Positions 16,144-44,537 are shown, counted from the first letter of the stretch. The stretch is 64,000 bases of DNA from Methanosphaera sp. ISO3-F5 (GCF_034480035.2 NZ_CP118753.2:917001-981000), one strand, 5' to 3'. The notes: generated from the letters alone by a model not told the origin. Translations and numbers: made by a program.

Positions 16144-16144
16144 C

Positions 16145-16154: not shown

Positions 16155-16403
16155 TACTGTTTAATTTCATTTTAACTGACTTTTAATAATTTAATTATAT
16201 TAAAGATAGAAAAAATAATAATTATTCTTCAATATATGTCCTGACAAAATTTCTGTTAAACAATAAAATAATAGTAAAAAAGAATAAAAAGGGGTATTTA
16301 ATTATAATATATCTTTTTTAAAAGAAAAAAGGTATTTAAATGATTATTTGTAATTATACTCTTGGATAAAATGGTATTATCCTTATTTTTAAACATTTTC
16401 TTG

Positions 16404-16535: not shown

Positions 16536-16547
16536 ATTTAACACCTC

Positions 16548-16937
16548 AATAGAATGTAATTATTTTATCATTTTAATGTTGCTATATTTGTTTTCTATAT
16601 CATCACTGTTTATATCTTTTTTCATTTTTAAATAACTATCATACATTAATTGACTCTTAATATACCATGTAGTACATTTATAGCTTTTAAAAGAGGATAA
16701 TCACCTAATTGAAAAATAAGTTAAAATTTAATAATAATATTAATATAATATTATATAGTTAATTTAAACAATTAAATAAAATGAATAATAACATGGTTAA
16801 TCTGATAAACAATTCAACAACAACAGAATAAGAATATACATAATAAAATCCAACAAATTCAAAAAACATCACATAAAATCACAATCCAGAATAATATTAA
16901 ATTAACTAAAAAAATACAAGAAAGGAGGAAATGATAG
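16548..16937. other. AT-rich upstream region of the first adhesin gene
   Basis: No gene is seen. It ends in AAAGGAGGAAATGATAG, containing the ribosome-binding site for the adhesin. A-rich and T-rich runs near 16735-16760 (AATATTAATATAATATTATATAG) are plausible TATA elements for either direction. Confidence 0.4.
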
Positions 16938-19900: not shown

Positions 19901-22900
19901 TTGGTATGAATATGATTACTTTAATGTAACAAACTGTGTATTCATAACCAACACTCCGAACACTTTCACACTATCTGGTAATAGGATAGTGTTGAATAAT
20001 AGTGACAATTATGTTCCGGACTTTGCAAATGTAACAGTATATGTTAATGAGGAAAACGGTGGAGTAAACACTACCCTAATAAGAGATCCTGAAACAGGTG
20101 ACGTATACATCAAGGATTACATTGCAAGTAAAACAAACTATGCATACAAAATAATAGTAACACAGACCGAGGAATCAGAATACTATGGATTAAACGACTT
20201 CATAAAAAACATCTACTATATAAAATTACCACACGACTACCTGTTATCAGTAACAGCAGACAATGTAACCCTGGAAGATAACACCACAATCAGGGGAAAA
20301 CTATACTACATTACAGAAGAAGGACAGGAAATAGCACTACCAAATAAAGACATAGAAATCTGGATAAACAACACACTTATAGACACTACAAGGACAAATG
20401 AGGACGGAACATACTCCTACAACCACACAGTTGACACCCTAGGAGAACATAACGTGGAAATAAAATTCACGGGAGATGCATATCTAAACGAAATAACAAA
20501 CCACACAACATTCAATGTAGAAAAACGAAACACCACAATAACAGTAACAGCAGAAAACACAACAATAAACAACCAGACAAATATCCACATAGAATTAAAG
20601 GACCATGAAGACAAGCCAGTAGCAAATGCAAACATAACAGTATACATAAACGAAAAAATAATAAACAAAGAAACAGACGAAAACGGTAAAATAAGCATAA
20701 CATACAACACAACACTAGCCAGCGAAAACCATGTATTCATATTATACGATGGAAACAATACATACAACCCATCACACAACATAACAACATTCATAGTAAA
20801 CAAACTAAACACAACAATAACAATACAGGCAACAAACTGCACAATCGGAGATACCATAACAATCAAGGGAAAACTAAGTGACCAACAACAAAAAGCAATA
20901 GCAAATGCAGCATTAATACTATTCATAGACGAAGAAGAAATACCATTAAACACTACCAGTAACGGAGAATTCACATACAATTACAAGACAATACACACCA
21001 AAGACAATTACATAGAAGTATTCTATGAAGGAAACGACACATACAAGGACACATACAACCACACAACATTCAACGTAGACAAGATCAACACAACAACCAC
21101 TGCAAATATAACAAGCCAAACAGTAGGAAACCTGTCATTCAATGTTAACATAAAAGGAGACGACAATAAAAAAATAAACAATGGAACAGTAATAGTAACT
21201 GATGAAAAAGGAGAAATCATAGCAGCACACAACATACAAGACAAGACAACACTCACAATACAGGACATAACTAGTGGAACATACACATTCAACATAACAT
21301 ATCAGGGAAACGACACATACAACCCATCCACAACAACACAAACAATAAAAATTAAAAAAGAAGCAAACATCACAATAAACGTAAAAAATAACACTGAAGG
21401 AAACGTGGAAATAGAAGTCACACTAACAGATGATAAAGATGAAACAATACCAGACCAGACAGTGGAAGTAACACTACCAAACGGTTCAAAAACAAACAAG
21501 ACCACAGACAAGAACGGAAAAATACTAATAAAAGATACCACCACACCACCAGGAAACACAAAAATAACAGTAAAAGTACCAGACACAAACGAAATAACAG
21601 GAACAAATAAAACCGAACAAATAACAATCCAACCAAACTACCAGAAAATCATTGACGAACTCGAAAAAACAAGTATTATAACAGCAATACCAGAAAACGG
21701 CACAGTAGACGACAACAAAGTCACAGTAACCCTAAATAATAAGATGGGAACACCAATAAGTAACGCACCAATCACAGTTAAAAACAGTAAAGGCTACATT
21801 ATTGGTAATGCAAGCACAGACAACAAAGGTATTGCAGTAATACCAGTAAAAACAAATGCTGGAACAGAGAACATCACAGTAACCTACCCTGGAAACGCTA
21901 AGTACTCGCCGGCCAGTACAACAGTTAGTATCACAACAAGTAAAAACAATGTAACAGTAACAGTTGATCCAGTATATGGAATAATCGGGGAAGACATCAT
22001 ACTAACAGCACACATTACTGACATTAAGGGTAATCCTGTCAGTGGCGGAAACCTTGTATTCAAACTAAACGGTAAAACACTACGAACAGATGGTAGATTT
22101 GACAGTAACGCAAGTGCATGGAAGTTCCAAGTTAAAAATGGAATAGTAACAATAAAAATCAATGCTGACCTTTACCTGCGTAACACTAAAAACCTAACAG
22201 CAAGCTACAGTGGAAGCTACAAGTACAATGAAGCAAAAAGCAAGACAGTAACTGCCCAGATCAAGAAACGAAATGCTAAATTAACAGTAACAACAAGTCC
22301 TAAAGCACAGAAACAATACAACAAGATAACATTCACGGCAAAACTAACAGACACAACACCAAACACCAAAAACACTACAGCAATGAGTACTGGTACCAAG
22401 GTAATATTCAAGGTTAACGGTAAAACAATAAAAGACAACAAAGGAAACAACTTACAGGTAAAAGTTGTTAACAACACTGCAACCTACAAGTACACTGTAC
22501 CGGCTGGTATGGGTGGAATCAGTAAGGACGGGTCAATACGTGACTACACTGTAGAGGCTGTACTGGTAAGTGACACTTACTACCCGGACACAAGGAATAC
22601 TGCAACCTTCAACATACAGAGAAGTCCAACAAGTATAAACATTAACAAGGTATCTGTAAACAATAAAAACATGTTAACAGTAAGTGCAGATATCAAGGAC
22701 TACAAGAACAATTATGTTATCGGAAACAGTAGTATAAACATTAAAATTAATGGTAAAAGTTATGTTAACCCTAAAACTGGTAAGACTCAGAACTTCCGGG
22801 CAGTAAATGGTAAATTAAGCCTTAAGAATATTCAGGTAAAACAGGATATTAAAATCAAGAATGTTATGATTGTGACTGGTGCTCGTCAGGCTTACCTTGG

Positions 22901-22937
22901 ACAGCGTAATGAGACAAGTAATATTGTTAAAATTTAA
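16938..22937 (+). CDS. Giant adhesin-like surface protein
   Basis: 1,999 residues. The N-terminal signal peptide is hydrophobic (KKLVLLILTIILITSLGVISA, split near residue 24). Residues about 70-1,030 are parallel beta-helix repeats with recurring GGAI/GGAL and INNS/ITNTTF motifs, the pattern of Methanobacteriales adhesin-like proteins. Residues about 1,090-1,999 are Ig-like repeats of about 85-90 residues, rich in NxT/NxS sequons. No sortase motif or C-terminal helix is seen; it ends ARQAYLGQRNETSNIVKI. The start is GTG 16938, about 10 bases after GGAGG, because the nearer ATG 16932 runs into a stop. Likely exported and held at the pseudomurein wall. Paralogue of the next gene. Confidence 0.9.
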   Translation: MINKKLVLLILTIILITSLGVISATDIQENSTDTNTIQKTQTSTNLQENTKTITKAEKLENKKATNTEAPDYETLYNTLTTSTSDEVTVTLTSTTDTYTITKPVTLNEAINKLTINGNGKTINGDNKHNFLTIKHACNLILNNITITKCNSTDMYGGALYQENGNITINNSAFTENHVNTSLIYRFGGAIALKNTNLNVFKSTFQSNGILEEEIKLPEYQDQNMFGGAIYFNGKQHNISIIDSEFNENGLSTDNTYQRGGALFIDTAGTTTIINTKFSSNKAGEGAGIYYNGAEGSTFNMNDTVFEYNNYDVISNLGAGLCIENNGSISFNNVNFTKNIAYQGSGFYYIGSKDSHMQLRKSNFESNGYKEGFLFNSHIGSIQIETDGYVLVEDSNFTSNKVEGWGAGAIDYNGGNNSILVLENNIFDSNGLVTEKVESGALGLWTSGNVTINNCLLKNNKAESSSAITYRNGNRNSKLTINNTVFDSNNYENEDNRCAAVDILAYCDVTITNSEFKSHKDNTSALRLQVLEGSITLENDTFDSNINTGELGALFIMSNVTTLIKNVTFTDNLGKNGSAMTYYGADNSTLILSDSLFDRNDEYTRYESNGGALYAMINGTVHITNTTFTDNNAEKGGALYVYSFDNGNLNITNSTFKENKAGYGGATYIETEGNVSITDTSFISNLGEEGSGLFYKNTNNGELIIRNSLFDSNGEVGYDCEVGGAIYFASTGNILIDDTDFTRNYAQYGSAIYFYADGNANITVNNSRFNGNGGSDDEPAQGGSIILIRGYCLVNNSEFINNSAVDGSAICLSDSSCLVNNSLFKNNLVNNGCINNYDGNLTVIYSKFIENTLYENEDESDGYGVAINNGGGNVTINHTKFIGNNFGDNVYGENSGGAIYSDDGNLYIDNSEFISNKAAETGGAIETSGNELIITNSLFKNNKVIGQDTNGGAISARHKRTVIDNCTFDSNTAKDDENSGGAIYAPDNHWYEYDYFNVTNCVFITNTPNTFTLSGNRIVLNNSDNYVPDFANVTVYVNEENGGVNTTLIRDPETGDVYIKDYIASKTNYAYKIIVTQTEESEYYGLNDFIKNIYYIKLPHDYLLSVTADNVTLEDNTTIRGKLYYITEEGQEIALPNKDIEIWINNTLIDTTRTNEDGTYSYNHTVDTLGEHNVEIKFTGDAYLNEITNHTTFNVEKRNTTITVTAENTTINNQTNIHIELKDHEDKPVANANITVYINEKIINKETDENGKISITYNTTLASENHVFILYDGNNTYNPSHNITTFIVNKLNTTITIQATNCTIGDTITIKGKLSDQQQKAIANAALILFIDEEEIPLNTTSNGEFTYNYKTIHTKDNYIEVFYEGNDTYKDTYNHTTFNVDKINTTTTANITSQTVGNLSFNVNIKGDDNKKINNGTVIVTDEKGEIIAAHNIQDKTTLTIQDITSGTYTFNITYQGNDTYNPSTTTQTIKIKKEANITINVKNNTEGNVEIEVTLTDDKDETIPDQTVEVTLPNGSKTNKTTDKNGKILIKDTTTPPGNTKITVKVPDTNEITGTNKTEQITIQPNYQKIIDELEKTSIITAIPENGTVDDNKVTVTLNNKMGTPISNAPITVKNSKGYIIGNASTDNKGIAVIPVKTNAGTENITVTYPGNAKYSPASTTVSITTSKNNVTVTVDPVYGIIGEDIILTAHITDIKGNPVSGGNLVFKLNGKTLRTDGRFDSNASAWKFQVKNGIVTIKINADLYLRNTKNLTASYSGSYKYNEAKSKTVTAQIKKRNAKLTVTTSPKAQKQYNKITFTAKLTDTTPNTKNTTAMSTGTKVIFKVNGKTIKDNKGNNLQVKVVNNTATYKYTVPAGMGGISKDGSIRDYTVEAVLVSDTYYPDTRNTATFNIQRSPTSININKVSVNNKNMLTVSADIKDYKNNYVIGNSSINIKINGKSYVNPKTGKTQNFRAVNGKLSLKNIQVKQDIKIKNVMIVTGARQAYLGQRNETSNIVKI

Positions 22938-23604
22938 TCAAACTTTTCTCTTTCTCTCTTTTTTTTTGATATGGATTGCAAATATTATTCTTTTTTTTAG
23001 TGCTATTTTAATCATGGAACATTTGAATAATGTTTAATTTAAATGTAATTAATTCTTATAAGAGCTTCTTTTTTATAAAATATTTTTCTAATTTGAATAA
23101 TGGTTATTTGATAACTTATTTTAACATATTTTGGTTATTTTGGGATTATTTTAATTATTATCCTTTTTTTATTGTTTATTCATATTTTTTTAAAATTTAA
23201 TTGGTTATTTTGTGGGTTGTTTTTTCTTATTCTTCCTTTAATTTTACTATAATATATTTCGTTTTATGATATATTTTTAAATGATATGTATCTTATTTTT
23301 TGTAGATTTTTATGGGAATGTTTGCCGGATATTTTTTTTTATTTTCTAAGAAATTATAATAAAATTTAATAGTTTTGTAATATAACTATATATAGTTAAT
23401 TTTGTTGTTTTAATAGGGCATAAAATAAATTATATTAGATTAAACAATTATTAATAAAATAAATAACTATATAAATAATTATTAACTTTCATATTAATAC
23501 TTTAAACAATATTATTATTGAAAAAACATATGGAAAAAAACATATTCAAACCCCTTTATAACAGTGGCATTAATTAACTAATCATCAATCTAAAGGAGGA
23601 AAAA
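22938..23604. other. Intergenic region between the two giant adhesin genes
   Basis: No gene is seen in about 670 bases. It starts with pyrimidine-rich runs (CTTTTCTCTTTCTCTC then TTTTTTTTT, about 22942-22968) that suit archaeal termination. It ends with the ribosome-binding site AAAGGAGGAAAAA before the next gene. The middle is T-rich and without clear structure. Confidence 0.5.
22944..22968 (+). terminator. Pyrimidine/T-run terminator after the first adhesin gene
   Basis: A CT-rich stretch passing into nine consecutive T residues immediately follows the stop codon. Archaeal RNA polymerase commonly terminates at oligo-T runs on the non-template strand. Confidence 0.4.
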
Positions 23605-26600
23605 ATGGTGATAAATAAGAAATTCTTCTTCATTTCACTAATAATCATACTTATCATGAGCTTAACCGTGATAAGTGCAACAGATGATTCAGGTAATTAC
23701 ACAACAGACCAGACATCACCAACACTCAAAGATATACAATCAGACACCACACCACAAACAACAAAAACCATAAACAAGAACACACAAACCAACACCAAAG
23801 AAGCAGCCAACACGAGCGTGACAAGTTACACACAACTATACGAAACACTCACAAGCTCAACAGCTGATGAAGACACAACAGTAAACCTGGGCGGAGATGA
23901 AGAAACATATACAATAACCGATACCATAACAGTTAATGAAGCAATAAAAAAACTCGTAATAAATGGTAACGGAAAAACAATAGATGGAAACAACGAAAAA
24001 CAATTCCTAATAGTAAATCATGCATGTAACCTAGTAATAAACAACCTTACAATCAAAGGATGTAATAATACAAGAGAACCAATTGGACATGTTGGTGGAG
24101 GAGCAATCTACACAAACAATACGGATATAACTCTTGAAAATGTTAATTTTATTAACAATTTAGCATATGTAAATCCTAAACCAAATATAGACTATGGTGA
24201 TGATTATTCATATGCAAGAGGTGGAGCATTATCTGTCAGTAATGGAAAAGCTACCATAATTGGTTCAACATTTGATAACAACAAGGTAGATTTCCGTCCA
24301 TATACTTTCGTAGCTGATCCTGATGAATATTATACATATCTTGCAGATAGTGAGGCAGGAGCATTATTTGTGGAAAATTCAACTCTAGAAATATCAAACT
24401 CCAATTTCATTAACAACGATGCAAATTTCTTTGCTGGTGCAATATTAATACAGAATAGTCAGAGTAAAATTAACAATACTTACTTCTCATCAAACAGAGC
24501 ATATGCAGGTGGAGCAATCTACTATGATGGGGATGATAAAAGCACACTAGAAATAGCCAATTCAACATTTGAAGATCACGAATACATAAAAGAAGTAACC
24601 TACTGGGATTTCACTACTGACTGGGAACAAAAAACTCGTTTAGAAGTGGATGGATACGGGGGAGCTTTACTAATACGATCCAATAATACTGTAATCATAA
24701 ACAACACTGTATTCACACATAACCTTGTAGACAAAGGTGCAGCAATAATGTACTATGGTAAAGCTGCAAGTAAACTGATCATAGACAAGTCAAAATTCAC
24801 AGAAAATGGGGTCGATGACACTGAAAGATTCTATACTAATGCAGGTGGAGCAATAAACATAGAAACATTAGGAAATACAACTATTACAAACACAATCTTT
24901 GACTCCAACACAGCACAAGGATACGGTGGAGCAATAAGCTACTATGGACTATTCTCAACAAACTTGGAAATTGACAACACAACATTCACATCAAACAAAG
25001 CTAATGTTGGTGGAGCAATAGACATGGAAACTATTGGAAAAACCAAAATAACCAACTCAACATTCACCACAAACCAAGCATATTACGACGGAGCAATATC
25101 ATATACATCAATAGACATTAACGGTGACGAGTTCCTAATTGGAACTGAAACAGTAAGCATCGAGGATATGGGTGAAATAAACTTAATAATAGATAATTCT
25201 ATCTTCGAATCAAACACTGCTGAAAGTTATGCTGGAGCAATATCCGCATCAAATCCACAGAACATGTCAATTACAAACAGTAAATTCAACTCAAACAATG
25301 GTACGTTCGGAGCAGTAGCAATCGTTAACGCTCAAGACAATACGGTTATTGAAAATGTTACTTTTGATTCTAACATTGGAATTTTAAATGGTGGAGCAAT
25401 CACATTTATCAACAACGCAACTGCAACCATAAAAAACAGCACATTTACAAATAATACTGGTGCAAGTAGTGGTGCAATAGTATACTTTGGATTTAATGAA
25501 AGTAATATTAACATAACAGATTCAGAATTCTATTTAAATGGTTATGCTGAAGAGGAACCTAGTAAACATGGTGGAGCAATAGCTATACAAACATATGGTA
25601 ATGTAACATTAGACAACAACAATTTCACATCAAACATTGCAGATGAGGGTGGAGCAATCTACTATACCAGCAAATTTGATGAAGAATTACAGATTGAATC
25701 AAAAGACACTAAACTGGTTATCAATAACAGTAACTTCAATTCACACGTTTATGATTCAAGAATTGGAATGCCAACTTCTGGAGGGGCATTATATATTGAA
25801 TCTAATAATTCTGTGATTATAGAAAACAGTAACTTTACAGAAAATCAGGCAGTGCAGGGTGGAGCAATAAATTATAACGGTTACAGTGAAAGCGATTTGA
25901 CAATCTGTTCATCAAAATTTGATTCAAACGGAATATTTTCAACTCATGAATCAACAATTGGTGGGGCAATATCGATAGAAAGTGAGGGTAATATAACAAT
26001 TAATGATTCCAAGTTCACAGGAAATCATGGACAAGAAGCTGCTATAATATATTATATTAATGCAAATGAAAACACATCATTTATAGTAGATAAGAGCATT
26101 TTTAATTCAAATGGAGATACATATGGTTATAATAGTTACCATACTTATCAAGGAATATACACGAAAAATGTAAAAAACATAAGTATTACAAATTCAGAAT
26201 TCAAAAACAATCTAATGAATTACGGTTTAATTTATTCCGATAATGAATTAGAAAACAGTTCCATATTGATTAAGAATGTAACAATAGAATCTACGGGTAA
26301 AACAGCTCATCATACTGAATCAGCGATAACTCTGTATAATTATGAAAATGTTAATATAATAAATACTACATTCTATGATAATATTGCTTGTGAAGGTGTA
26401 TTGTATATACGTTATTCTAATAATACTCTTATCGAAAATTCTACCTTTGATACCAATGGACAAATTCGTAATGCCAACGATGTTAGTGGTCATATCTTAT
26501 ACATAGAGGATTCAACTAATTTAACAGTATCCAATTCCAAATTCTTTAATAACAGAATAAATAGTGAAGGAGTTATTAGTTTTCATTCACAATTAAATGA

Positions 26601-29600
26601 TACTTATGTGAATATTACTGATTCAGTATTTGATTCTAATAAGGGTACAACAGGAGGAATACTAAACTTACGTACTTATAGTGGTAATGTGTATCTTATC
26701 AACTCTAACATCACAAACAATGTAGTAAATAATGAAAGTTATACAAGTGAATATTATGGCCTGATAATATACAATACAGCAGATAGGTATTATGATAGTG
26801 ATAATTATGAATATATCTACTATAATGGAAGTAACATATACATTAACAACAGTAACTTCATAGGAAACGGTCTTCCAAAAGAATATTCAAATATACAACA
26901 TGCATCTAGTTTAATATATCATGATGCTAACTCAAATTTAACTATTGATAATTCTAATTTCACTGCAAATCGTGGAGGAGATTATGAAGCAGGATTAATA
27001 TATTATTCTGATACAAATCCAGACATACTACTACTCATCAACAACACGTCATTCAAAGATAATATAATATTACATACAGGTGAAGACATCAGTATCAGGA
27101 ATATGATAATATATGCACTAGGAAATGTTAGAATTGATAACAGTCTTTTCAGCAACAACCGATTTGATGATTCAAGAATTGTTAAAGAAAATATGGAAAA
27201 GAAAATTACTGTAATTGATGGAGAATGTAATGTAACCAACACAATATTTGTAGATAATTACCATTCCAACTTTATTATCCAGGATAACAAAATCGTTCTA
27301 GACACTATCAATTATGTATCGACAGGACTATTGGATGATGGTTACATTCCAGACTTTGGAGATGTAGTAATATATGTAGATGAGAGTGATGAAGGAAAAC
27401 ATTACAAGTTAGTATCAGAAACAGATGCAGAAACAGGAATAAGAAAAACATATGTACAAGACTTCAAGGTAGATGATGAAAATTATGTGATAAAAATGGT
27501 GGTAAACCAGACCAGCGAATCACAATACTATGAAGATCAAACTTTCCACAACAACACATACTACTTCATATTACCACACGATTATAAACTAACAGTAAAC
27601 GCAACAAGCCCAATATACGTGGGAGATAACACAACAATCACAGGAAAAGCATACTACACCAAATCAGATGGAACAATAGTAGCATTCACAGAAAAACCAG
27701 TAGACCTATACATTAACGGAACATACATAGCAACAACAAACACAGACAGTAATGGAGGATACGAATTCAATTACACCGGAAACATTATAGGAACACATAA
27801 TATTACAATAGGATTCAACAAGACAATATACCTGCCAAAAACTACAAACACAACCACATTCACAGTACTAATCAGGGAAAGCATCCTAAACATTGATGTA
27901 AACAATACAAAAATAGGAGACAAAACAAACATCACAATCACACTCAAAGACAAGACAGGTAAACCAATAAGCAACGCACCAATACAATACCTCGTAGATG
28001 ATAAGCTGGCAAACGGCACAACAGATGAAAACGGTACACTCAAAATTACATCTGAAATAGAATACACAGGACATAACTATGTAGTAGCATCATATGCTGG
28101 AAACTACAGCTACACAGATGCAATAAACTCAACAATATTCACGGTAGACAAACTCAACACCACTGCAACAATAACCGCAACAAACACAACACTCGGCAAA
28201 GAAACAACAATAACCGGAAAAATAGTGGATGAAAACAATAAAGGAATAAAAGTACCAGTAATCATATACATAGACGAGGAAACTATAAACACAGAAACTG
28301 ATGAAACAGGTTCATTCACATTCACATACCCAGCAACATTAGCAGGTGAAAACCATGTTGCAATATTCTATGAAGGAAACGACACCTACGCAGACAGTAC
28401 CAACAAAACCAGCTTCCACGTGGAAAAACATAACACCACAATAACAGTAACAGCACAAAACACTAAACTCGGCGAAAAAACAACTATCCGAGGAAAACTA
28501 GTGGACGAAAATGGTAACAAAGTACCAAATGCACCAGTAATACTTATCATAGAAGATGAAGAAGTAGACCTCACAACCAATGCTAATGGTGAATTCACAT
28601 ACAACTACACAACCAAGTATGAAAATGAAAACTTCGTAGAAGTATTCTATGAAGGAAACGACACACACAAGGACAGCTTCAACCATGCAAAATTCAACGT
28701 AACCAAAAAAGCAGAAGCACAAATTGATATTGATATCTTAAATGATACAGTAGGAAACGTTGAAATAGAAGTAACAGTAACTGATGAAAAAGCAAAAGCA
28801 TTACCAGACCAGACAGTGGAAGTAACACTACCAAACGGTACAAAAACAAACATGACCACTGACAAGGATGGTAAAATACGGGTAAAAGACACTACCTCAC
28901 CAGAAGGAAACACTAACATAACAGTAAAAGTACCAGACAGTGCAGATGTAACTGGAACAAACAAAACCAAACAGTTCACAATAGAACCAGACTACCAGAA
29001 AATCATAGAAGACATGAAAGATAAAATACAAGAACTAGAAGACACACTGGACAAACTAAACAAAACTAGTATTATAACAGCAATCCCAGAGGAAAGCACT
29101 GTGGATGATGCAGAAGTCACAGTAACCCTAAATAATAAGATGGGAACACCAATCACTAATGCACCAATAACAGTCAAAAACAGTAAAGGCGAAATTATTG
29201 GTAACGCAAGCACAGATAACAAAGGTATTGCAGTAATACCAGTAGATACCAAAGCAGGAACAGAGAACATCACAGTAACATACTCTGGAAACAGTAAGTA
29301 CACACCAGCAGAAACTACTGTAACAATGAAAACAGTTAAAAACAATGTAACAGTAACAGTAGACCCAGTAGAAGGAATAATAGGCGAGAAAATCACATTA
29401 ACAGCACATGTCACTGACATTAAGGGTAATCCTGTAAATGGTGGAAACCTTGTATTCAAACTAAACGGTAAAACACTAAGAACAGATGGTAGATTTGACA
29501 GTAACGCAAGTGCATGGAAGTTCCAAGTTAAAAATGGAATAGTAACAATAAAAATCAATGCTGACCTTTACCTACGTAACACTAAAAACCTAACAGCATC

Positions 29601-30333
29601 TTACAGTGGAAGCTACAAGTACAATGAAGCAAAAAGCAGCACAGTAACTGCCCAGATCAAGAAACGAAACGCTAAAATAACAGTAACAATAAGTCCTAAA
29701 ACACAGAAACAGTACAATACAATAAAATTCACAGCAAAACTAGCAGACACAACACCAAACACCAAAAACACTACAGCAATGAGTACTGGTACCAAGGTAA
29801 TATTCAAAGTAAACGGTAAAACAATAAAAGACAACAAAGGCAAAAACGTACAGGTAAAAGTGGTTAACAACACAGCAACATACAAGTACAAGGTACCGGC
29901 TGGTATGGGTGGAGTAAGCAAGGATGGCAAGGTACGTGACTACAATGTAGAAGCAGTACTGGTAAGTGACACTTACTACCCGGACACAAGAGACATTGCA
30001 ACATTCAATGTCGAAAGAAGCCCAGTAACGATAAACATAGCAAAGGTAAGCCTTAACAGCAAAAACGTGCTTAATGTACAGGCAACAATCAAGGACTACA
30101 AGGCTAAAAACGTGATAGGCACTAACCAGGTGAACATTAAAATCAATGGTAAAACCTATGTTAACCCTAATACTGGTAAGACACAAAACTTCCAGGTTAC
30201 TGATGGTAAGATAAGTCTTAAGAATATTCAGTTAAAAGATGATATTACAGTTAAGAAGGTTATGATTGTTACTGGTGCACGTCAGGCTTACCTTGGAGCT
30301 CGTAACGAAACAAGCAACATAATAAAAGCTTAA
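23605..30333 (+). CDS. Giant adhesin-like surface protein, paralogue of the preceding gene
   Basis: 2,242 residues. The signal peptide (MVINKKFFFISLIIILIMSLTVISA) is followed by a long beta-helix region (about residues 75-1,230) with GGAI, ISNSNF and ITNSTF repeats, then Ig-like repeats and a short coiled segment (IIEDMKDKIQELEDTLDKLNKT, about residues 1,795-1,815). The last 350 residues are almost the same as the previous gene's, down to many synonymous bases. It begins ATG-GTG-ATA-AAT-AAG after AAAGGAGG, so it starts one codon earlier than its paralogue. It should be secreted and wall-associated, acting in attachment or surface variation. No anchoring motif is visible. Confidence 0.9.
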   Translation: MVINKKFFFISLIIILIMSLTVISATDDSGNYTTDQTSPTLKDIQSDTTPQTTKTINKNTQTNTKEAANTSVTSYTQLYETLTSSTADEDTTVNLGGDEETYTITDTITVNEAIKKLVINGNGKTIDGNNEKQFLIVNHACNLVINNLTIKGCNNTREPIGHVGGGAIYTNNTDITLENVNFINNLAYVNPKPNIDYGDDYSYARGGALSVSNGKATIIGSTFDNNKVDFRPYTFVADPDEYYTYLADSEAGALFVENSTLEISNSNFINNDANFFAGAILIQNSQSKINNTYFSSNRAYAGGAIYYDGDDKSTLEIANSTFEDHEYIKEVTYWDFTTDWEQKTRLEVDGYGGALLIRSNNTVIINNTVFTHNLVDKGAAIMYYGKAASKLIIDKSKFTENGVDDTERFYTNAGGAINIETLGNTTITNTIFDSNTAQGYGGAISYYGLFSTNLEIDNTTFTSNKANVGGAIDMETIGKTKITNSTFTTNQAYYDGAISYTSIDINGDEFLIGTETVSIEDMGEINLIIDNSIFESNTAESYAGAISASNPQNMSITNSKFNSNNGTFGAVAIVNAQDNTVIENVTFDSNIGILNGGAITFINNATATIKNSTFTNNTGASSGAIVYFGFNESNINITDSEFYLNGYAEEEPSKHGGAIAIQTYGNVTLDNNNFTSNIADEGGAIYYTSKFDEELQIESKDTKLVINNSNFNSHVYDSRIGMPTSGGALYIESNNSVIIENSNFTENQAVQGGAINYNGYSESDLTICSSKFDSNGIFSTHESTIGGAISIESEGNITINDSKFTGNHGQEAAIIYYINANENTSFIVDKSIFNSNGDTYGYNSYHTYQGIYTKNVKNISITNSEFKNNLMNYGLIYSDNELENSSILIKNVTIESTGKTAHHTESAITLYNYENVNIINTTFYDNIACEGVLYIRYSNNTLIENSTFDTNGQIRNANDVSGHILYIEDSTNLTVSNSKFFNNRINSEGVISFHSQLNDTYVNITDSVFDSNKGTTGGILNLRTYSGNVYLINSNITNNVVNNESYTSEYYGLIIYNTADRYYDSDNYEYIYYNGSNIYINNSNFIGNGLPKEYSNIQHASSLIYHDANSNLTIDNSNFTANRGGDYEAGLIYYSDTNPDILLLINNTSFKDNIILHTGEDISIRNMIIYALGNVRIDNSLFSNNRFDDSRIVKENMEKKITVIDGECNVTNTIFVDNYHSNFIIQDNKIVLDTINYVSTGLLDDGYIPDFGDVVIYVDESDEGKHYKLVSETDAETGIRKTYVQDFKVDDENYVIKMVVNQTSESQYYEDQTFHNNTYYFILPHDYKLTVNATSPIYVGDNTTITGKAYYTKSDGTIVAFTEKPVDLYINGTYIATTNTDSNGGYEFNYTGNIIGTHNITIGFNKTIYLPKTTNTTTFTVLIRESILNIDVNNTKIGDKTNITITLKDKTGKPISNAPIQYLVDDKLANGTTDENGTLKITSEIEYTGHNYVVASYAGNYSYTDAINSTIFTVDKLNTTATITATNTTLGKETTITGKIVDENNKGIKVPVIIYIDEETINTETDETGSFTFTYPATLAGENHVAIFYEGNDTYADSTNKTSFHVEKHNTTITVTAQNTKLGEKTTIRGKLVDENGNKVPNAPVILIIEDEEVDLTTNANGEFTYNYTTKYENENFVEVFYEGNDTHKDSFNHAKFNVTKKAEAQIDIDILNDTVGNVEIEVTVTDEKAKALPDQTVEVTLPNGTKTNMTTDKDGKIRVKDTTSPEGNTNITVKVPDSADVTGTNKTKQFTIEPDYQKIIEDMKDKIQELEDTLDKLNKTSIITAIPEESTVDDAEVTVTLNNKMGTPITNAPITVKNSKGEIIGNASTDNKGIAVIPVDTKAGTENITVTYSGNSKYTPAETTVTMKTVKNNVTVTVDPVEGIIGEKITLTAHVTDIKGNPVNGGNLVFKLNGKTLRTDGRFDSNASAWKFQVKNGIVTIKINADLYLRNTKNLTASYSGSYKYNEAKSSTVTAQIKKRNAKITVTISPKTQKQYNTIKFTAKLADTTPNTKNTTAMSTGTKVIFKVNGKTIKDNKGKNVQVKVVNNTATYKYKVPAGMGGVSKDGKVRDYNVEAVLVSDTYYPDTRDIATFNVERSPVTINIAKVSLNSKNVLNVQATIKDYKAKNVIGTNQVNIKINGKTYVNPNTGKTQNFQVTDGKISLKNIQLKDDITVKKVMIVTGARQAYLGARNETSNIIKA

Positions 30334-36478: not shown

Positions 36479-39400
36479 TTATATCTTTAGTACAGTTGTT
36501 ACTTTTCCTGTCTTGTACGCACTATTTTCTCCACTTATTATCAGTAACTCGTAGAGTCCTGGTCTGAGTGTTGTTGTGAATGACAGGTTTATTTTCCCGT
36601 TTTTACTCTTTACATTGTTTAGCAATGTTTTACCCTTTACTTTGAATGCTAGTTTAGTATTGGTTACGAGTAGTTTGCCTGTTTCATCCGTGATTGTTGC
36701 CTTAACTGTGGTTTTTTTGTTCTTGGTGGTTACACTGTCTGGTGTGATGAGTACTGCTTTTTTCTCTAGTTTTATGCTGCCATTGGTTTCGGTTCGTTGG
36801 TAGTATTTTCCTCCGAATACTGCTGTTAGTGTGTATGTTTTTGCACTGTATGTTGCTGGTATGGTATATTCTAGTACTGCTTCTCCGTCTTTTACCTTTG
36901 CGTATAGTGTGTTTCCTTTCTTGTCTTTTAGTGTTTTGCCGTTTATTTTGAACACTACTTTGTCATTGTTTACACGGTCACCATTGGCGTCTAGTACTTT
37001 TGCTCTTAGTGTTATTGTTTGTCCTGCCTTGGCTGTGATTGTTTTCTTGTCTAGTGTTATCTTGGCTTTTCCTTTGCTGATGTTTAGTATTCCTGTTGCA
37101 TTGCTTCGGCAGGTCTGGTACTTCTCGGTTCCACTGTATACTGCTTCGATATAAGTGGTGTTTTTTATCCATACGCTTTGTACTTTATAATTTATGCTTG
37201 CTATTCCATCTTTTACTTGTGCATAGATGATGTTACTGTTTTCGTCTTTTAGTGTTATTCCATTGATTTTGAAGATTGCTTTTCCACTGTTTACTTTTTC
37301 TTTATTTTCATCTTGTATGTTGGCTGTTAATTTGGTTATGCTTCCTATGCTGGATTTTATTGGATTTATTGTAATTGTCGTGTTTAATGGTGGTTGTGTT
37401 AGTTCTTTTATAATGTCATTTAATTTTTCTATTGTTTGATTTTGTTGCTCGATTATGTTCTGGTAGTCTGGTAATATGTTTATTTTTTGTGTTAGTGTGG
37501 TGTTTGTGTAGTCATCATTTTCTGTTTTATGGGCTGTGATAGTTGTTAATCCTTTTTGTGCCGGTATTCCTGTTAGGCTTATTTTTCCTTCATTGTCCGT
37601 GGTTTTTGTTATGCTACTTCCATTTGGTAGTGTGATATTGATTTGTTCTTGTTTTATTGGTTTGCTGTTTTCGTCTGTGACTGTTATTGTTGCTGTTAAG
37701 TTGTTTTCTATTGGATTTATTATGTCGATTTTTATATTGGTTTGATGTTTTACTTTAATTGTGACTTGGTAGTTGGATTGCATGTGTGTCTGATTTCCTG
37801 TGTATGCTGCTATAATGTTATGTTCACCATATGCATAGTAAGGTCTTATTATTGTTTCATTGTTATTTATATGTCCAATTATTGTCTGACCAGTTTCATC
37901 AGTAATTGTTATTGTTCCATTGCTTATATAATTATTTTCTTCATCTTGGACTGTTACTTTTACTATTGTGTTGGCAGCTGTGTTGTTTATGATTGTTATC
38001 TTGGTTTGTGTCTTAATTAATTTTTCATAATTTAATATGTATATGTTATCAGAGTAAGTGTCATTGCTTCCTTTAACTATGAGTTTTATTCTATGATTTC
38101 CAGCTGGTGCTGTGAAGTCCTCTATTTTTCTATCAGTTAAATTAAGGATTTCTCCTTCTCTATCATCAATGTATATTTGTACTGGTGATGTTTTTGGTAT
38201 AACTGTTGGATTCTCATTTAATATTACATTACGTGTTTCGTTTAATATGAATTCAGCCGGTGTTGAATTTATGAACGTGTTACCTGTTAGGTTCATACTA
38301 GAATTGAATGTGTTGAGTATTGCTCCTCCAATGGAGGCAGTGTTATTGATTATAGTGTTACTTGTTATGCTCATACTAGAATTGTATGTGTTGTATATTG
38401 CTCCTGCATATACTGTTGCAGTGTTGTTGTTTATTATGTTACTTGTTATGGTCATACTAGCAATGTACTCATTGTGTATTGCTCCAGCGTATATTGTTGC
38501 AGTGTTGTTGTTTATTGTGTTGCCTGTTATGATTATATTAGATTGGTAGTTGCATATTGCTCCTCCACGATCACTTGCGACATTATTGTTTAGTGTGTTG
38601 TCTGTTATAGTCATATCAGAATGGTTGAAGTTGATTACTGCTCCCCCATTTTTTCCTGCGTTGTTTTGTATAGTGTTTCTTGTTAGGATCATATTAGATT
38701 CGAGGTTGCATATTGCGCCTCCACTGCTTGTTGCGTTGTTGTAGTTTATTGTGTTTCCTATTAGAATCATATTAGCATTATGGATGTTATATATAGCTCC
38801 TGCTCTGGTTGCAGTGTTGTTGTTTATTGTGTTGCCTGTTATGTTCATAGTAGAACCATTACTGTTAAAAATTGCTCCTCCACCAACAAATGTGTCTGTT
38901 CCATTCGCATGATTGTTGTGTATTGTGTTTCCTGTTAGGGTCATACTAGCATGATTTGTGTTGAATAATGCTCCCCCACTTTGTTTTACATTATTATTGT
39001 TTAATATACTATCTTGTATGGTTAGTGTCCCCTGGTTAGATATTGCGCCCCCATTCGTTGCTGTACAATTTGTGATTGTAATATTTTTTATTGTTGCTGT
39101 GGTTTCACTTGGAATATTTAGGAATTGATATTGTCCATTCCCGTTTATTGTGTGATTGTTTCCATCTATAGTCAAGGTTTTTATTCCATTATTAACAGTT
39201 GTACTGGCAGTAAGTGTTATGTTAGATGTGATGCTAATTGTTAAGGCATCATATGTGCTGTTTGTCAGATAACTATTTAATGTATCATAATCATCTATGT
39301 CTACTGTTACTGGTGCTGTTTTCGTGTTTGTTGTCCTGTTTTTCTTTATTTTTTCTTTTATCGTTTTTAAATTATTTTCTTTTCCTGTTTGTATTTCTTT

Positions 39401-39553
39401 TACTTCAGTACCTGTTGCTACTTTTTCTACTTGTGTTGTTGTTTTTTCTAGCACGTCATCATCTGTTGTTGTATTATCACTAGCATTCACAACACTTATA
39501 CTTAGAAGCAATAGCATGCTTAGTACTAAGAAGTATTTGAATTTTTTCATCAT
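36479..39553 (-). CDS. Adhesin-like surface protein
   Basis: 1,024 residues. The signal peptide (MMKKFKYFLVLSMLLLLSISVVNA) precedes a Thr/Lys-rich linker, then about twelve regular 23-residue beta-helix repeats of the type MTITGNTINNNTATxGGAIYN (about residues 150-430), then Ig-like repeats (about 500-1,024) related to those of the two giant adhesins. No wall-sorting motif or C-terminal helix is visible. It should be exported and attached to the pseudomurein surface. The repeats are so regular at DNA level that slippage or recombination could change their number. It is on the minus strand, convergent with the UbiB/HEAT operon. Confidence 0.88.
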   Translation of the reverse strand: MMKKFKYFLVLSMLLLLSISVVNASDNTTTDDDVLEKTTTQVEKVATGTEVKEIQTGKENNLKTIKEKIKKNRTTNTKTAPVTVDIDDYDTLNSYLTNSTYDALTISITSNITLTASTTVNNGIKTLTIDGNNHTINGNGQYQFLNIPSETTATIKNITITNCTATNGGAISNQGTLTIQDSILNNNNVKQSGGALFNTNHASMTLTGNTIHNNHANGTDTFVGGGAIFNSNGSTMNITGNTINNNTATRAGAIYNIHNANMILIGNTINYNNATSSGGAICNLESNMILTRNTIQNNAGKNGGAVINFNHSDMTITDNTLNNNVASDRGGAICNYQSNIIITGNTINNNTATIYAGAIHNEYIASMTITSNIINNNTATVYAGAIYNTYNSSMSITSNTIINNTASIGGAILNTFNSSMNLTGNTFINSTPAEFILNETRNVILNENPTVIPKTSPVQIYIDDREGEILNLTDRKIEDFTAPAGNHRIKLIVKGSNDTYSDNIYILNYEKLIKTQTKITIINNTAANTIVKVTVQDEENNYISNGTITITDETGQTIIGHINNNETIIRPYYAYGEHNIIAAYTGNQTHMQSNYQVTIKVKHQTNIKIDIINPIENNLTATITVTDENSKPIKQEQINITLPNGSSITKTTDNEGKISLTGIPAQKGLTTITAHKTENDDYTNTTLTQKINILPDYQNIIEQQNQTIEKLNDIIKELTQPPLNTTITINPIKSSIGSITKLTANIQDENKEKVNSGKAIFKINGITLKDENSNIIYAQVKDGIASINYKVQSVWIKNTTYIEAVYSGTEKYQTCRSNATGILNISKGKAKITLDKKTITAKAGQTITLRAKVLDANGDRVNNDKVVFKINGKTLKDKKGNTLYAKVKDGEAVLEYTIPATYSAKTYTLTAVFGGKYYQRTETNGSIKLEKKAVLITPDSVTTKNKKTTVKATITDETGKLLVTNTKLAFKVKGKTLLNNVKSKNGKINLSFTTTLRPGLYELLIISGENSAYKTGKVTTVLKI

Positions 39554-40151
39554 AGTTATCCAGTCATTTATTTTTAATATTTTACATCATTATTAGCAAA
39601 GTTCATAATTTTTGATTTAATACTATAATCTTTTATTTAGTTTAATGAACTCATTACTTTGTATTATATATAAACATTTTATTTTATTTATATCTACTGT
39701 CATAAATAGTCATTTGAAACGTTTTAATCTGGTTTGAAGTTTAGTCTTTTAATGGATGTTGATTATTATTAACTTATTATTTTTTTCTTATGATAAAAGA
39801 GAGAATATATCCTTTGTACCCGAAAAACCTTAATACAAATCATTACAATGACTATTCAAACCCTGTTTGAAATTTATTTATTATTAGTATGAAAAAATAT
39901 TAACATTCCCCTTATAATTATTGGATATGAAATTCACTAAGAGAATGGATTAAAAAATAGTATAGAGAGGAACTGTTTTTTTCTTATTTTAGATTTTAAT
40001 TATGTGAGTCTAGATTTATAGTTCTTCAAAAAAGTATTCGTATCCTTTGTTTTTGTAGTATATCATTGATTTATGATATCATTATAAATTTACAATAATT
40101 TTGGTGAAAAAATCAAAAAAAAGAGGGGAAGATGGACTGAATAAAAAATTT
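39554..40151. other. Intergenic region between two minus-strand adhesin genes
   Basis: About 600 bases, very A+T-rich, with no gene. It should contain the promoter of the 36479-39553 gene (for example TATATATAAAC near 39665) and the terminator of the 40152-44537 gene. Similar pieces such as ATCTGGTTTGAAGTTTAG and CCCTGTTTGAAATTTA occur, without clear meaning. Confidence 0.45.
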
Positions 40152-43100
40152 TTATCCAATAATAATATTTTCCGTGTAAGTGTTTGTCTGATTTTCATTA
40201 TCTGTGAAAACTACTTTAATTTCATGAACTCCTAAGTATTTATCCAATAATTCAAGAATTAGCATTGCACTATCTTCTGATGTAGTTCCATTGAATACAA
40301 GTACTCCATCAATATACACTAGTAAATGACCGTTTGTAAAGTTTAAGTTAAATATTTTATTCAATGCATTTAATGTTAATTTATTTCCTGTAAATACTAC
40401 TGTGTTATCACTTGCAAGTTTAATTGTATAAATGTTTTGTCCTATTTTATTGTTTTCTATGCTTTTATGTAATCTTACATTTTCTGATGTCTTATGTGAT
40501 CTTTGAGGTGTTGTTTTATTTGATGAATTATCTGATTTTGAATCATCAGGTTCTATAGTACAATTATAGGTAAATGCATCACAATTAAATGTATCATTTG
40601 TATTATTTATTAAAACACAATTATATAATGATGGTTCTGTATTATTGGCATATATAGCACCACCGCTTTCAGCATTATTTGTTAAAAAACGGGTATTATT
40701 CACCAATAAAGTATCATTAGTAAAGATAGCACCACCAAATTTTGCATGGTTATCAATAAAGGAAGCTTTTTCTATTGTTGCGTTATGGACATATAATCCT
40801 CCACCGTATACTGCGGAATTGTTTATGAATTTGCCGTTGAATTTTACGTTTACCATGTTGTTTAAGAAGTTTATTCCTCCTCCATATTCGGCTTTGTTGT
40901 TGATGAAGTTGGAATTAAATACTATGTTGTATGGTGTTTCTCTGTAGTTTACTGCTCCACCATAGTTATTTGCGGTATTGTTTATGAAGTCGCATTCGAA
41001 TGAGTTATTGGTTGATGTGTCTCTGAATATGAGTGCTCCACCGTTACCGTTTGGTGCTGTGTTGTTTATGAATTTTCCTTTGATTTTGTTGTTGTTTGCT
41101 AGGTCGAAGAAGATTATTGCTCCTCCGTGTGCTTTTGCTGTATTGTATCTTAAGTCGCTGTTGAATGTGTTGTTGTGTGTTTGGTTGAAGAAGAATATTC
41201 CTCCACCGTTTACTCCTTCATTGTATTTAAAAATACTTTCGAATATGTTGTTTGTTGTGAGGTCGTGGAATAGTAATGCTCCTCCGCTTACTTCTTGTGC
41301 TTTGTTTTGGATGAATTCTGATTTGAATGTGTTGTTTTTTACGCGATTTCTGAAGTACATGGCTCCTCCGTCACGTTCTGCAATGTTTTCTTTAAAGGTT
41401 CCGAGAATACGTGTATTTTCTACTGGGCCTTCAAAGTATATTGCACCGCCCCGTATAGCAGAGTTATTTACGAAGACTGAGTCAATTAAACTATCAACAG
41501 TGGATGATTCGATGGTCGGATAAGTCAGAAAGATTACTCTTTCCTTCTCTCCTAAGAACCGTACGTGTCCCTTTCAAGACATACGGCTCAAGCATAATTT
41601 TTATCTCGAATATCAACTTTAGAATATTTCATTCCTTTATATTACTTTTCTTATTTTAATGTCTTTTAGAGTATAGACATTCGAATGGACTCATTTTCCA
41701 TCTGTTATAGATGTAATCTGAGTATTCTTTATTATATGGGCTACAATCATGTTTGATTTGTTTACCATATCTTATGTGTATGTTTTTCATCTTGATAATT
41801 TGTAATTTCGGGTCTTCGGGGTCAGTAAGTATATAACTATACCCGTAGTGTGGGTCTATGTCCTTCTGAAGGTACTTATTTCTAATCCAAGACCATGACT
41901 TCATCGGATGTTGTCTAACTAAATATTGTTTAGTTAAATTCCAAACGTATTCGTCAATTTGACCAAATGTCTTTTTGGCTACTGATTGTCTCCAATAGTA
42001 GGCTGTTCCCAAGATAATTTGATTGACTTTTTCGATGAGTTTTGAAATACTTTTACCTCGATTATTTACAAACACATCTCGTATTTTAGCTTTACACTCG
42101 GATATACTTTTCTTTGATGGTTTAATAAGAACTTTTTCATGGTTTTGTGTGTGATAGTTTCTTATATTGAATCCGAGAAAATCGAATCCATCATCAATGT
42201 GTGTTATCCGTGTTTTATCCTCTGCAAGAGTTAAACCCCTTTCTGACAAGTAAGGTTCTAGTAAACCATAAATATTTTCTGCATCTTCCTTTGTTTTACA
42301 AATTACTACAAAATCATCTGCATATCTAATCATAATATACTTGGATGTGTTATGATAATTTATGTTTCCTATCTTGTCAGTATGTTGTTTATATTCTATA
42401 TTTAGGGCATCTTCCATACCATGTAGGGCTACATTTGCCAATACTGGGGAAATAATTCCTCCTTGTGGTGTTCCCGTACTGGTTATGTTGATACAGCCGT
42501 TATATAGATATCCTGCTTCTAACCATGATTTGATAACTTCTTTAGCAGGGAAATTTCCCAGCTGTTTTATTATAAAGTCGTGGTTGAGTGTGTCAAAGCA
42601 TGATTTAAAGTCACCTTCAAAGATCCATTTTCTAATATGACCCTTAGTTGATGTGTGTATTTTAGCTATTGCATGTTCAACACCTCTTAAGGGTCTGAAT
42701 CCATATGAACATGGTTCAAACCAAGCTTCAACACGAGGTTCTAAAGCTAATTTAACAACCATCTGATAAATCCTATCAATAATTGTAGGAATACCTAATG
42801 GTCGCTTCTTACCATTTTTCTTATCAATATAAACTCTCCTAACCGGAGAAGCCTTGTGTAAGAAAACGCTACGCTCTTTAAGTTTGTAATACAAAGCCAT
42901 ACGCTCAGCATCTGATAGTATAATCATACCATCTATGCCAGGAGTACGCTTACCACCATTAATTTGTGTAACCCTCCTGATACTATACAAGAGAGTTGAA
43001 TCCTTGTTTAAAAGAATTCGTTGCAAATTTCTGGCTTTATTATATTCTTTGTTGATTTCGGCACTAAATATCCGTTGTTGCAAATCAAATATGCTTCTTT

Positions 43101-44537
43101 CAATTTTATGCCATGGGATTTCTTTCCATTCACATTCTAATTTAGAAGCATATAAACTCACGGACTGGCTAATATCATTGATATTATCAGTTTTACTCAT
43201 ATAGTTTATCTTCAATTTGATTCACTTTCCGTTTTATCTGTGTTTTACACCTGTTAAAGTCAGCATATCCTCAGCAATTATTATTTCCTATTTCTTGCTT
43301 GTCTTAACGACATTTGAGGCTTTAGCTTCCTTAACATCCTTTACCCAGTAAGGCTTATTAGCATCCGCTCACGCAGTAGCCTACCAGTACTATCTTATAC
43401 ACATGACTAGTTATAGACTGGACACAAACTGGGCTTACCAAGTTTATCTTCTGTCAGACTGCGACCAACTTAGACTCTCCCACTACGCCGGTAAACATAT
43501 GGGTTATGAACAAGTACACATCATATAACTGTGTACGACCTGTTTACAAGACGAGAGATTAACTTTCAGCATTCTATCCTCTCGCTGAGGTTGACGACGC
43601 TTATAAGAGTTCATTTATCATTAGTCATATTGGTCTTTCTCTAGCCCTCACACCCTTGAATGCTAGCGTGTGATTAGACATTAACTCTCATGCAACCCAC
43701 ATCCTTCGTTACCAAAAGATGCAGTTTCGAGTGAGAATAGCCCACATAACTGGGCTAACAGCATCCGAGAAACCTTAGATTCCTAAGATGCCATACTGAC
43801 TAATAAAGGAAAGAAGATAATTGCTTGTCGCACTATATTGCACCTCCACTGGTAGCATTATTGTTTTTGAAACTACAATCAATTATGTCTAAATCAGTAC
43901 TATTGGAATAAACTGCACCACCAAAATTTGCTACGTGATTATCCATAAAAGTACAATTAACTAATTTAACATTATTTCCAGTTATATAAAGTACTCCACC
44001 ATTTTCAGAAGCACCATTAACAAAAACTATGTTCTTGAACGTAATATTATTTCCAGTGACATTAAACATCCGGGCATGAGAACTTCCATCGATAATATGA
44101 TCATTTCCATCAATTATCAAATTGTTCCCATTTATCTTTATTCCATTCACATAATCCATGTCCTGAGCAGAACTAAAAGTAAAACTCTGATTCAAGAGAG
44201 CATAATCATCTGAACAAGAAATAAGATAATCTAAATTATTAAATGTGGAACCAAAATCAATTTCACCATTAAAACCACTAGTTAATGCCAATTCTTCAGA
44301 TAATCCCTTATCCGTATACTGGGCGGATGCTTCATCTGAAACATCCAAATTATTCATTTCACTGTTTGTTGAAGGGGTTTCCCCTTCAGCCATGTTGAAC
44401 GAATTATCATCTGTAACCGATTCAACATTTTCTAATCCATTATTTGTGTCATCCGAAGTATTTCCAACAGCACTAACAGCTCCAATTGTCAATACTGTCA
44501 ATAAAATACTCAGAAATATTACTCTTTTAATATTCAT
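40152..44537 (-). CDS. Adhesin-like gene interrupted by a group II intron (exons 44537-43834 and 41523-40152)
   Basis: Exon 1 (704 bases) encodes a signal peptide (MNIKRVIFLSILLTVLTIGAVSA), an acidic linker and the first beta-helix repeats up to ATSGGAI. Exon 2 (1,372 bases) continues with PTIESSTVDSLIDSVFVNN and many GGAI/GGAL repeats, ending in an Ig-like module before TAA. Removing 41524-43833 gives 2,076 bases, exactly 692 codons, with no stop at the junction (GGAI-Y-YPTIE). Without splicing, the frame ends at a TAG that starts 1 base before the intron. The protein should be a 691-residue secreted adhesin-like protein, made only if the intron splices. Confidence 0.85.
41556..41589 (-). 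ncRNA. Group II intron domain V
   Basis: A 34-base hairpin on the minus strand, starting GAGCCGTATG, with a GAAA-type loop and ending CGTACGGTTC. It closely fits the catalytic domain V consensus, including the AGC triad. It lies 32 bases before the proposed 3' splice site. Confidence 0.92.
41656..43200 (-). CDS. ltrA: Group II intron reverse transcriptase/maturase without endonuclease domain
   Basis: 514 residues from ATG 43200 (a TTG 15 bases earlier is in frame). Reverse-transcriptase motifs are present: GKRTPGIDG, KRPLGIPTIIDRIYQ, FEGDFKSCFDTLNH, GTPQGGIISPVLANVALHG and the catalytic YADDFVVIC. Domain X for splicing follows (about residues 360-450). The C-terminus ends soon after NKEYSDYIYNRW and lacks the CxxC/HNH endonuclease of many relatives. 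Such proteins help the intron RNA fold and splice and copy it into DNA; without the endonuclease, movement usually needs nicked or replicating DNA. No stops or shifts, so it looks functional. Confidence 0.93.
   Translation of the reverse strand: MSKTDNINDISQSVSLYASKLECEWKEIPWHKIERSIFDLQQRIFSAEINKEYNKARNLQRILLNKDSTLLYSIRRVTQINGGKRTPGIDGMIILSDAERMALYYKLKERSVFLHKASPVRRVYIDKKNGKKRPLGIPTIIDRIYQMVVKLALEPRVEAWFEPCSYGFRPLRGVEHAIAKIHTSTKGHIRKWIFEGDFKSCFDTLNHDFIIKQLGNFPAKEVIKSWLEAGYLYNGCINITSTGTPQGGIISPVLANVALHGMEDALNIEYKQHTDKIGNINYHNTSKYIMIRYADDFVVICKTKEDAENIYGLLEPYLSERGLTLAEDKTRITHIDDGFDFLGFNIRNYHTQNHEKVLIKPSKKSISECKAKIRDVFVNNRGKSISKLIEKVNQIILGTAYYWRQSVAKKTFGQIDEYVWNLTKQYLVRQHPMKSWSWIRNKYLQKDIDPHYGYSYILTDPEDPKLQIIKMKNIHIRYGKQIKHDCSPYNKEYSDYIYNRWKMSPFECLYSKRH
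43514..43536 (-). ncRNA. Candidate exon-binding (EBS1) hairpin loop of the intron
   Basis: On the minus strand, GTACAC and GTGTAC pair around the loop AGTTATATGAT, about 300 bases from the intron 5' end, where EBS1 loops commonly lie. TATAT in the loop can pair with the last five bases of exon 1 (ATATA). The pairing is short, so this is a candidate only. Confidence 0.35.

What the first reader, a model, noticed from the sequence alone, without database searches (positions are those of the whole stretch)
40152..44537. Group II intron whose removal exactly restores an archaeal adhesin reading frame
The adhesin gene is split by a 2,310-bp element starting GTGCGAC and ending AC, with a 34-base domain V and an intact maturase. 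Deleting 41524-43833 leaves 704 + 1,372 bases = 692 whole codons with no stop. Group II introns in archaea mostly sit in intergenic regions or inside other mobile elements. Here a surface protein would depend on RNA splicing, which could act as a switch for adhesin production.
Basis: partly seen in the sequence, partly recalled or inferred. Interest (0 to 1): 0.85.

Follow-up and report, generated by a model that had tools for sequence, protein, structure and literature searches.

The report
Mobile intron inside an archaeal adhesin gene
A self-splicing mobile intron sits inside a surface-adhesin gene of a sheep-rumen methanogen; a strain of the same species carries the gene without it, which fixes the exact intron ends, and seven related insertions in all sit in the same repeated Gly-Gly-Ala-Ile type motif of adhesin genes, which suggests that these introns use that motif as a recurring target.

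Summary
The element is a 2,319-bp group IIB intron at 43833-41515 (minus strand), not 43833-41524. Domain VI, its branch A and EBS3 need the extra 9 bases. Because 9 is a multiple of three, the frame is still restored (688 aa).

The genome is Methanosphaera sp. ISO3-F5. The decisive test is a same-species goat-gut MAG that carries the intron-free allele: the in-silico spliced gene aligns to it over 2,067 of 2,067 bases with no gap.

The case is not isolated. ISO3-F5 has four more introns in adhesin-like protein (ALP) genes, all at Gly-Gly-Ala-Ile (GGAI) type codons; splicing restores ORFs of 780-2,058 aa. Two of these also have empty alleles. The window's intron recurs in the MAG at a different adhesin gene, again at GGAIY. 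EBS1, EBS2 and EBS3 covary with the local exon sequences.

Best reading: endonuclease-free mobile group IIB introns that retrohome into a repeated, codon-phased motif of a large redundant surface-protein family, where splicing hides them. The proposed "adhesin switch" has no support. Splicing itself was not observed.

Verdict: new variant (target niche) of a known kind.

The parts
43834..44537 (-). 5' exon of adhesin-like protein gene (704 nt, signal-peptide-like start, ends GGA GGT GCA ATA TA)
   Evidence: 98% identical to the intron-free allele in same-species MAG
41515..43833 (-). group IIB intron, 2,319 bp, GTGCGAC...TTATCCGAC
43842..43846 (-). IBS2 in 5' exon (GAGGT, -13..-9)
   Evidence: pairs with EBS2; covaries across copies
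43834..43838 (-). IBS1 in 5' exon (ATATA, -5..-1)
   Evidence: pairs with EBS1
43587..43591 (-). EBS2 (ACCTC) in domain I
43523..43527 (-). EBS1 (TATAT) in a hairpin loop of domain I
43483..43483 (-). EBS3 (G), pairs with the first base of the 3' exon (C at 41514)
   Evidence: 11 of 11 introns pair at this column, one by wobble; best of all columns
41656..43215 (-). intron-encoded reverse transcriptase/maturase in domain IV (519 aa from TTG 43215; likely start ATG 43200, 514 aa); no HNH endonuclease domain found
41556..41589 (-). domain V (34 nt, AGC triad)
41518..41552 (-). domain VI with bulged branch A at 41521
40152..41514 (-). 3' exon of the adhesin-like gene (1,363 nt, repeats of GGA[I/V/L], Chlamydia-PMP type)

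Best explanation
This is a mobile group IIB intron with an intact maturase that lacks the HNH endonuclease. It belongs to a clade of Methanosphaera introns whose exon-binding sequences often match the codons of the Gly-Gly-Ala-Ile(-Tyr) motif, which is repeated many times in the adhesin-like proteins (ALPs) of these archaea. The intron RNA plus maturase recognises the motif through EBS2 and EBS1 (5' side) and EBS3 (3' side), reverse-splices into the coding strand and is copied into DNA. Because the motif is codon-phased, each insertion falls at a fixed place in a codon, and splicing of the pre-mRNA rebuilds the ALP frame. Without splicing, translation stops at the junction (TAG), giving a truncated 234-aa protein. 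Shown: exact boundaries, intron-free alleles, EBS/IBS covariation, same-motif insertions at different genes, open spliced frames. Inferred: that the intron splices in vivo, that the full-length adhesin is made, and that mobility is current and uses retrohoming with replication-derived primers.
For: Intron-free allele in the same species, 2,067/2,067 nt gapless, 97.9% identity. Empty alleles also for two sister insertions: i683 over 1,200/1,200 nt gapless, and c2_36 with a clean junction. Five insertions in this genome and two elsewhere lie in GGAI-type codons; those with both exons in hand restore ORFs of 688, 2,058, 782, 780, 945 and at least 809 aa. The window intron's copy in the MAG, 97.7% identical over nucleotides 1-2288 of 2319, sits in a different ALP gene (GGTGGTGGAGCTATATA|). 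Own EBS/IBS pairs score above all 50,000 permutations for EBS1 and for EBS2, and EBS3 pairs with +1 in 11/11. GGAI-type sites are abundant: 63 GGNGCNATATA vs 5 for the reversed control, and 152 TATGGTGGAGCAATA with up to 2 mismatches vs 6. Maturase and ALP are intact, with dN/dS 0.17 and 0.38 between strains.
Against: No RNA evidence of splicing. EBS1-IBS1 of the window copy is 5 of 6 pairs, so splicing efficiency is unknown. The full EBS2+EBS1+EBS3 pattern for the window copy is not enriched in the genome (7 vs 5 control): the pool is the motif, not a perfect match. Two ALP insertions (G008a, G010b) are not at GGAI, and relatives in the same clade are intergenic or in other genes. The four sister copies are closely related and not independent.
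Confidence: 0.85

Rival explanations
1. Splicing of the intron is regulated and works as an on/off switch for this adhesin.
For: Unspliced message would stop at TAG exactly at the junction, giving 234 aa; a C. tetani group II intron in a surface-layer gene makes isoforms (PMC3919590).
Against: The same species lives with the intron-free allele; introns sit in several ALP genes on two different EBS registers, which suits target abundance, not control of one gene; in C. tetani the isoform levels did not change much with growth condition.
Confidence: 0.04
2. The intron no longer splices; the gene is a tolerated null allele in a redundant family.
For: ALP genes are many in this genome (four large GGAI-rich frames in this 64-kb window alone), so loss of one may be harmless; no transcript data.
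Against: All catalytic parts look intact (domains V and VI, EBS1-3, maturase); both exons remain open with no frameshift against the empty allele and dN/dS is 0.38, though the time since insertion may be too short for decay.
Confidence: 0.1
3. Insertion in GGAI codons is chance: introns insert anywhere and ALPs are just a large part of the genome.
For: Other members of the clade are intergenic, in an IS66 transposase or in a symporter gene.
Against: Five of seven non-nested complete introns in this genome are in ALPs; even if ALPs were 10-15% of the genome (a guess), P is 2e-4 to 1e-3 (copies not independent). EBS sequences pair with the motif, and the same lineage is at different GGAIY sites in two strains.
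Confidence: 0.03

Closest known systems
Thermosynechococcus elongatus TeI3/TeI4 group IIB introns (PMC2882425; best solved-structure match 6me0)
   Same: Best solved-structure match of the maturase is 6me0 chain C (E 4e-91 over 499 residues; that this is the T. elongatus TeI4h maturase is from my own knowledge). Multi-copy IIB families that diverge in EBS1-3 and so move to new target sets; twintrons.
   Different: Host is an archaeon; targets here are a codon-phased repeat motif of one protein family; the window maturase stops short of the C-terminal part of the longer 6me0 chain and has no HNH hit.
Clostridium tetani C.te.I1 in a surface-layer protein gene (PMC3919590)
   Same: Group II intron joined to surface-protein genes, with reading frames fused by splicing.
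   Different: C.te.I1 has no maturase, lacks EBS2, has four D5/D6 motifs with alternative 3' exons and demonstrated splicing; here there is one intron with its own maturase, one D5/D6 and one pair of exons, with no RNA data.
Methanosarcina nested group II introns (cited in PMC2882425)
   Same: Archaeal mobile group II introns; nested introns also occur in relatives found here.
   Different: Those insert into each other; the window copy is in a host coding gene and is not nested.
Ll.LtrB mRNA invasion and trans-splicing (PMC6248898)
   Same: An intron that recognises short IBS1/2-like motifs in many mRNAs.
   Different: RNA-level chimeras were shown there; nothing of the kind has been tested here.

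Membership tests
Group II intron (IIB, mobile, maturase-encoding) | 5' GTGYG and 3' AY boundary | tested here: met
   GTGCGAC ... CCGAC; confirmed by the empty allele
Group II intron (IIB, mobile, maturase-encoding) | 34-nt domain V with AGC triad and domain VI with bulged A | tested here: met
   Rfam RF00029, 58.9 bits; fold z -4.6
Group II intron (IIB, mobile, maturase-encoding) | EBS1-IBS1, EBS2-IBS2 and a separate EBS3-IBS3 pairing (IIB) | tested here: met
   covariation across 15 introns; EBS3 11/11; full domain I model not drawn
Group II intron (IIB, mobile, maturase-encoding) | Reverse transcriptase and maturase domain X | tested here: met
   RVT_1, RVT_N, GIIM; TIGR04416 above cut-off
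Group II intron (IIB, mobile, maturase-encoding) | DNA endonuclease (HNH) domain, present in only part of the family (optional) | tested here: not met
   no HNH hit; match to 6me0 stops at residue 487 of 562; optional feature, does not exclude membership
Group II intron (IIB, mobile, maturase-encoding) | Mobility: occupied and empty alleles of one site | tested here: met
Group II intron (IIB, mobile, maturase-encoding) | Splicing in vivo or in vitro | not testable with these tools
   no RNA data
Adhesin-like protein (GGAI/PMP-type repeat surface protein) | N-terminal signal and repeats of the PMP/GGAI type | tested here: met
   PF02415 E 1e-5 and TIGR01376 E 2e-14 on the 3' exon; hydrophobic N-terminus by eye. 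Adhesion itself not tested
C.te.I1-like alternatively spliced surface-protein locus | several downstream D5/D6 motifs as alternative 3' splice sites | tested here: not met
   only one group II hit in the 64-kb window

The most novel reading that the evidence does not exclude
Because related introns sit at the same codon position of the same motif in different adhesin mRNAs, trans-splicing or reverse splicing into other adhesin mRNAs could join the 5' part of one adhesin to the 3' part of another, always in frame and with the GGAI motif rebuilt: an RNA-level shuffler of surface proteins.
Probability: 0.06. Interest if true: 0.85.

Novelty: new variant of a known kind. Interest (0 to 1): 0.52.

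Why it matters
Group II introns are usually thought to avoid host coding genes or to hide in mobile DNA and terminators. Here a clade of archaeal introns uses a repeated coding motif of a large surface-protein family as its target, so the host offers dozens of in-frame sites. The system comes with occupied and empty alleles in two strains of one species, and with a cultured, fully sequenced isolate. That makes in vivo splicing of an archaeal protein-coding gene by a group II intron, and its effect on a surface protein, directly testable.

Tried and rejected
An exact EBS2+EBS1+EBS3 target pattern for the window copy was not enriched over its reversed control. The search for the megaplasmid ALP/intron in PLSDB found nothing. 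The viral-contig search gave one distant RT only (44%), so there is no sign of a viral vector. Orthologues of the hosts of introns i1963 and c2_97 and of the MAG's GGAIY host were not found, so those empty alleles are untested. A first EBS2 test at positions -13..-8 failed because the register was wrong; -14..-9 is the register used. Literature searches in the held library found no paper on group II introns in adhesin-like genes of methanogens; subscription journals are mostly not held.

Full report
What is there. On the minus strand an adhesin-like gene runs from 44537 to 40152 and is split by one group II intron. The 5' end is GTGCGAC at 43833. Rfam places domains V and VI at 41591-41515 (RF00029, 58.9 bits), so the 3' end is 41515 and the intron is 2,319 bp. 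Because the error is 9 nt, the frame comes out open in both cases, which is why it went unnoticed. The correct product is 688 aa, and the junction reads SGGAIY|IESS.

Identity of the genome. The window lies in a genome of 2,506,044 + 174,118 bases. The total and the larger contig are exactly the sizes published for Methanosphaera sp. ISO3-F5 from sheep rumen, a PacBio-complete chromosome plus megaplasmid (PMC11008217).

Decisive test. The in-silico spliced window sequence aligns over 2,067 of 2,067 bases with 43 mismatches and no gap, straight across GGAGGTGCAATATA|CATCGAATC. The two alleles are both open; dN/dS between them is 0.38.

Not a single case. Searching the genome with the intron gave four more full-length relatives (about 68% identical) and fragments. 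All four lie in large adhesin-like genes. All four interrupt the Ile codon of a Gly-Gly-Ala-Ile type motif: GGAGCTA|TATTCC (GGAI), GGATCAA|TAATGA (GGSI), GGAGCAA|TACATA (VGAI), GGAGCAA|TAGTTA (GGAI). Removing the intron gives ORFs of 2,058, 782, 780 and 945 aa. For two of them the MAG again has an uninterrupted allele: i683 is gapless over 1,200 nt at 95.7%, and c2_36 at 92.5% has a clean junction. The window's own intron exists in the MAG as a copy 97.7% identical over nucleotides 1-2288, where domain VI is interrupted by a nested intron, but in a different adhesin gene, again at GGA GCT ATA TA|. A further species has an insertion at GGGGCTA|TAGCTC. Two other adhesin-gene insertions (G008a, G010b) are not at GGAI. 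Other relatives are intergenic, in an IS66 transposase (i1902), in a symporter gene (G017) or nested in other introns. In total 9 of 20 Methanosphaera intron loci examined are in adhesin-like genes.

How the site is chosen. In an alignment of the 5' 640 bases of 15 introns, the EBS2, EBS1 and EBS3 positions vary with the exons. Own pairs score 81.5 of 90 for EBS1 against 45.6 +- 5.3 for permuted pairs, and 71.5 against 33.4 +- 4.9 for EBS2; none of 50,000 permutations reaches the observed values, also in a non-redundant subset of 12. EBS3 pairs with the first base of the 3' exon in 11 of 11 introns, one by wobble; the column was chosen as the best of all columns, so that count is optimistic. 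In the window copy EBS2 ACCTC pairs with GAGGT, EBS1 TATAT with ATATA and EBS3 G with C. In the MAG copy EBS2 has changed to GCCAC opposite GTGG, a change on both sides at one pair. EBS3 is A there, which predicts a T after the junction, the other Tyr codon; the 3' exon is missing from the assembly, so this is a prediction. The window lineage and the sister lineage bind the same motif in registers 4 nt apart (GGTGCAATATA| and GGTGCAA|), so two different EBS solutions point at one motif. On the maturase tree they are separate lineages in one well-supported clade of 14 that also holds non-adhesin insertions; adhesin targeting needs at least 3 changes on the tree (G017 was labelled intergenic there and is in fact in a symporter gene, which does not change the count).

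Target supply. The genome has 63 GGNGCNATATA sites against 5 for the reversed pattern, and 152 sites within 2 mismatches of TATGGTGGAGCAATA against 6. The full three-part pattern of the window copy is rare (7 against 5), so the abundant resource is the motif, not perfect targets.

The enzyme. The maturase (519 aa from the first TTG, probably 514 aa from ATG 43200) has RVT_N, RVT_1 and GIIM domains and exceeds the TIGR04416 cut-off; no HNH domain was found. Its best solved relative is the maturase of 6me0. It is under constraint between strains (dN/dS 0.17). Mobility without endonuclease, using replication-fork primers, is established for other introns and is inferred here.

What it does to the host. 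Unspliced message stops at TAG on the junction, leaving a 234-aa fragment. Splicing would rebuild the adhesin. No RNA data were available; splicing is inferred from intact catalytic parts and intact exons. A regulatory switch is possible in principle, but nothing supports it, and the intron-free allele in the same species shows that the intron is dispensable.

Compared with the literature. T. elongatus shows multi-copy IIB families that shift EBS sequences to reach new targets (PMC2882425). C. tetani shows a group II intron that makes surface-layer protein isoforms, without a maturase and with several alternative 3' ends (PMC3919590). A survey of 296 archaeal genomes found introns mostly in Halobacterota and none in most other phyla (PMC8919778). 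I found no report of introns targeting a repeated adhesin motif in methanogens in the held library. I therefore rate this a new variant, by target niche, of a known kind.

Noticed in passing
L025 (ISO3-F5 C1:1944500-1954500) at about 3459; L033, L035, L039, L044, L048, L073: A different group II intron (GTGCGACAAGATAGG...) is inserted at the same point of domain VI (..AGGAGAGA| or ..GGGAGAGA|) in several different introns, making twintrons in four genomes; in L025 the outer domain VI is whole once the inner intron is removed.
   Followed up: partly
L167 near 15470-17773 (G078 C40) and L166 at 6693 (G074 C4): Introns sit in frame within pseudomurein endo-isopeptidase (Peptidase_C71) type genes of a related genus, at two different points of the same domain (YYRI|AKSLGY and VQF|VHV).
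   Followed up: partly
L178 at 1905-4179: Group II intron inserted in frame in the reverse transcriptase of another group II intron, exactly after YADDF.
   Followed up: no
L086 (MAG Ruminococcaceae bacterium RUG13829): Maturase of a rumen bacterial MAG falls inside an otherwise archaeal clade on the tree: inter-domain transfer or mis-binning.
   Followed up: no
L157 (G058 C1:538000-553000), maturase at G058 C1:545032-546513: The genome search reports this maturase in an open frame of 2,204 aa with one TGA inside; two other copies in the same genome also carry one TGA.
   Followed up: no
window 16937-22934, 23577-30330, 36482-39586: Three further large frames rich in GGA[IVL]-type motifs: the window holds several adhesin-like genes and many empty GGAI-type target sites.
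   Followed up: partly
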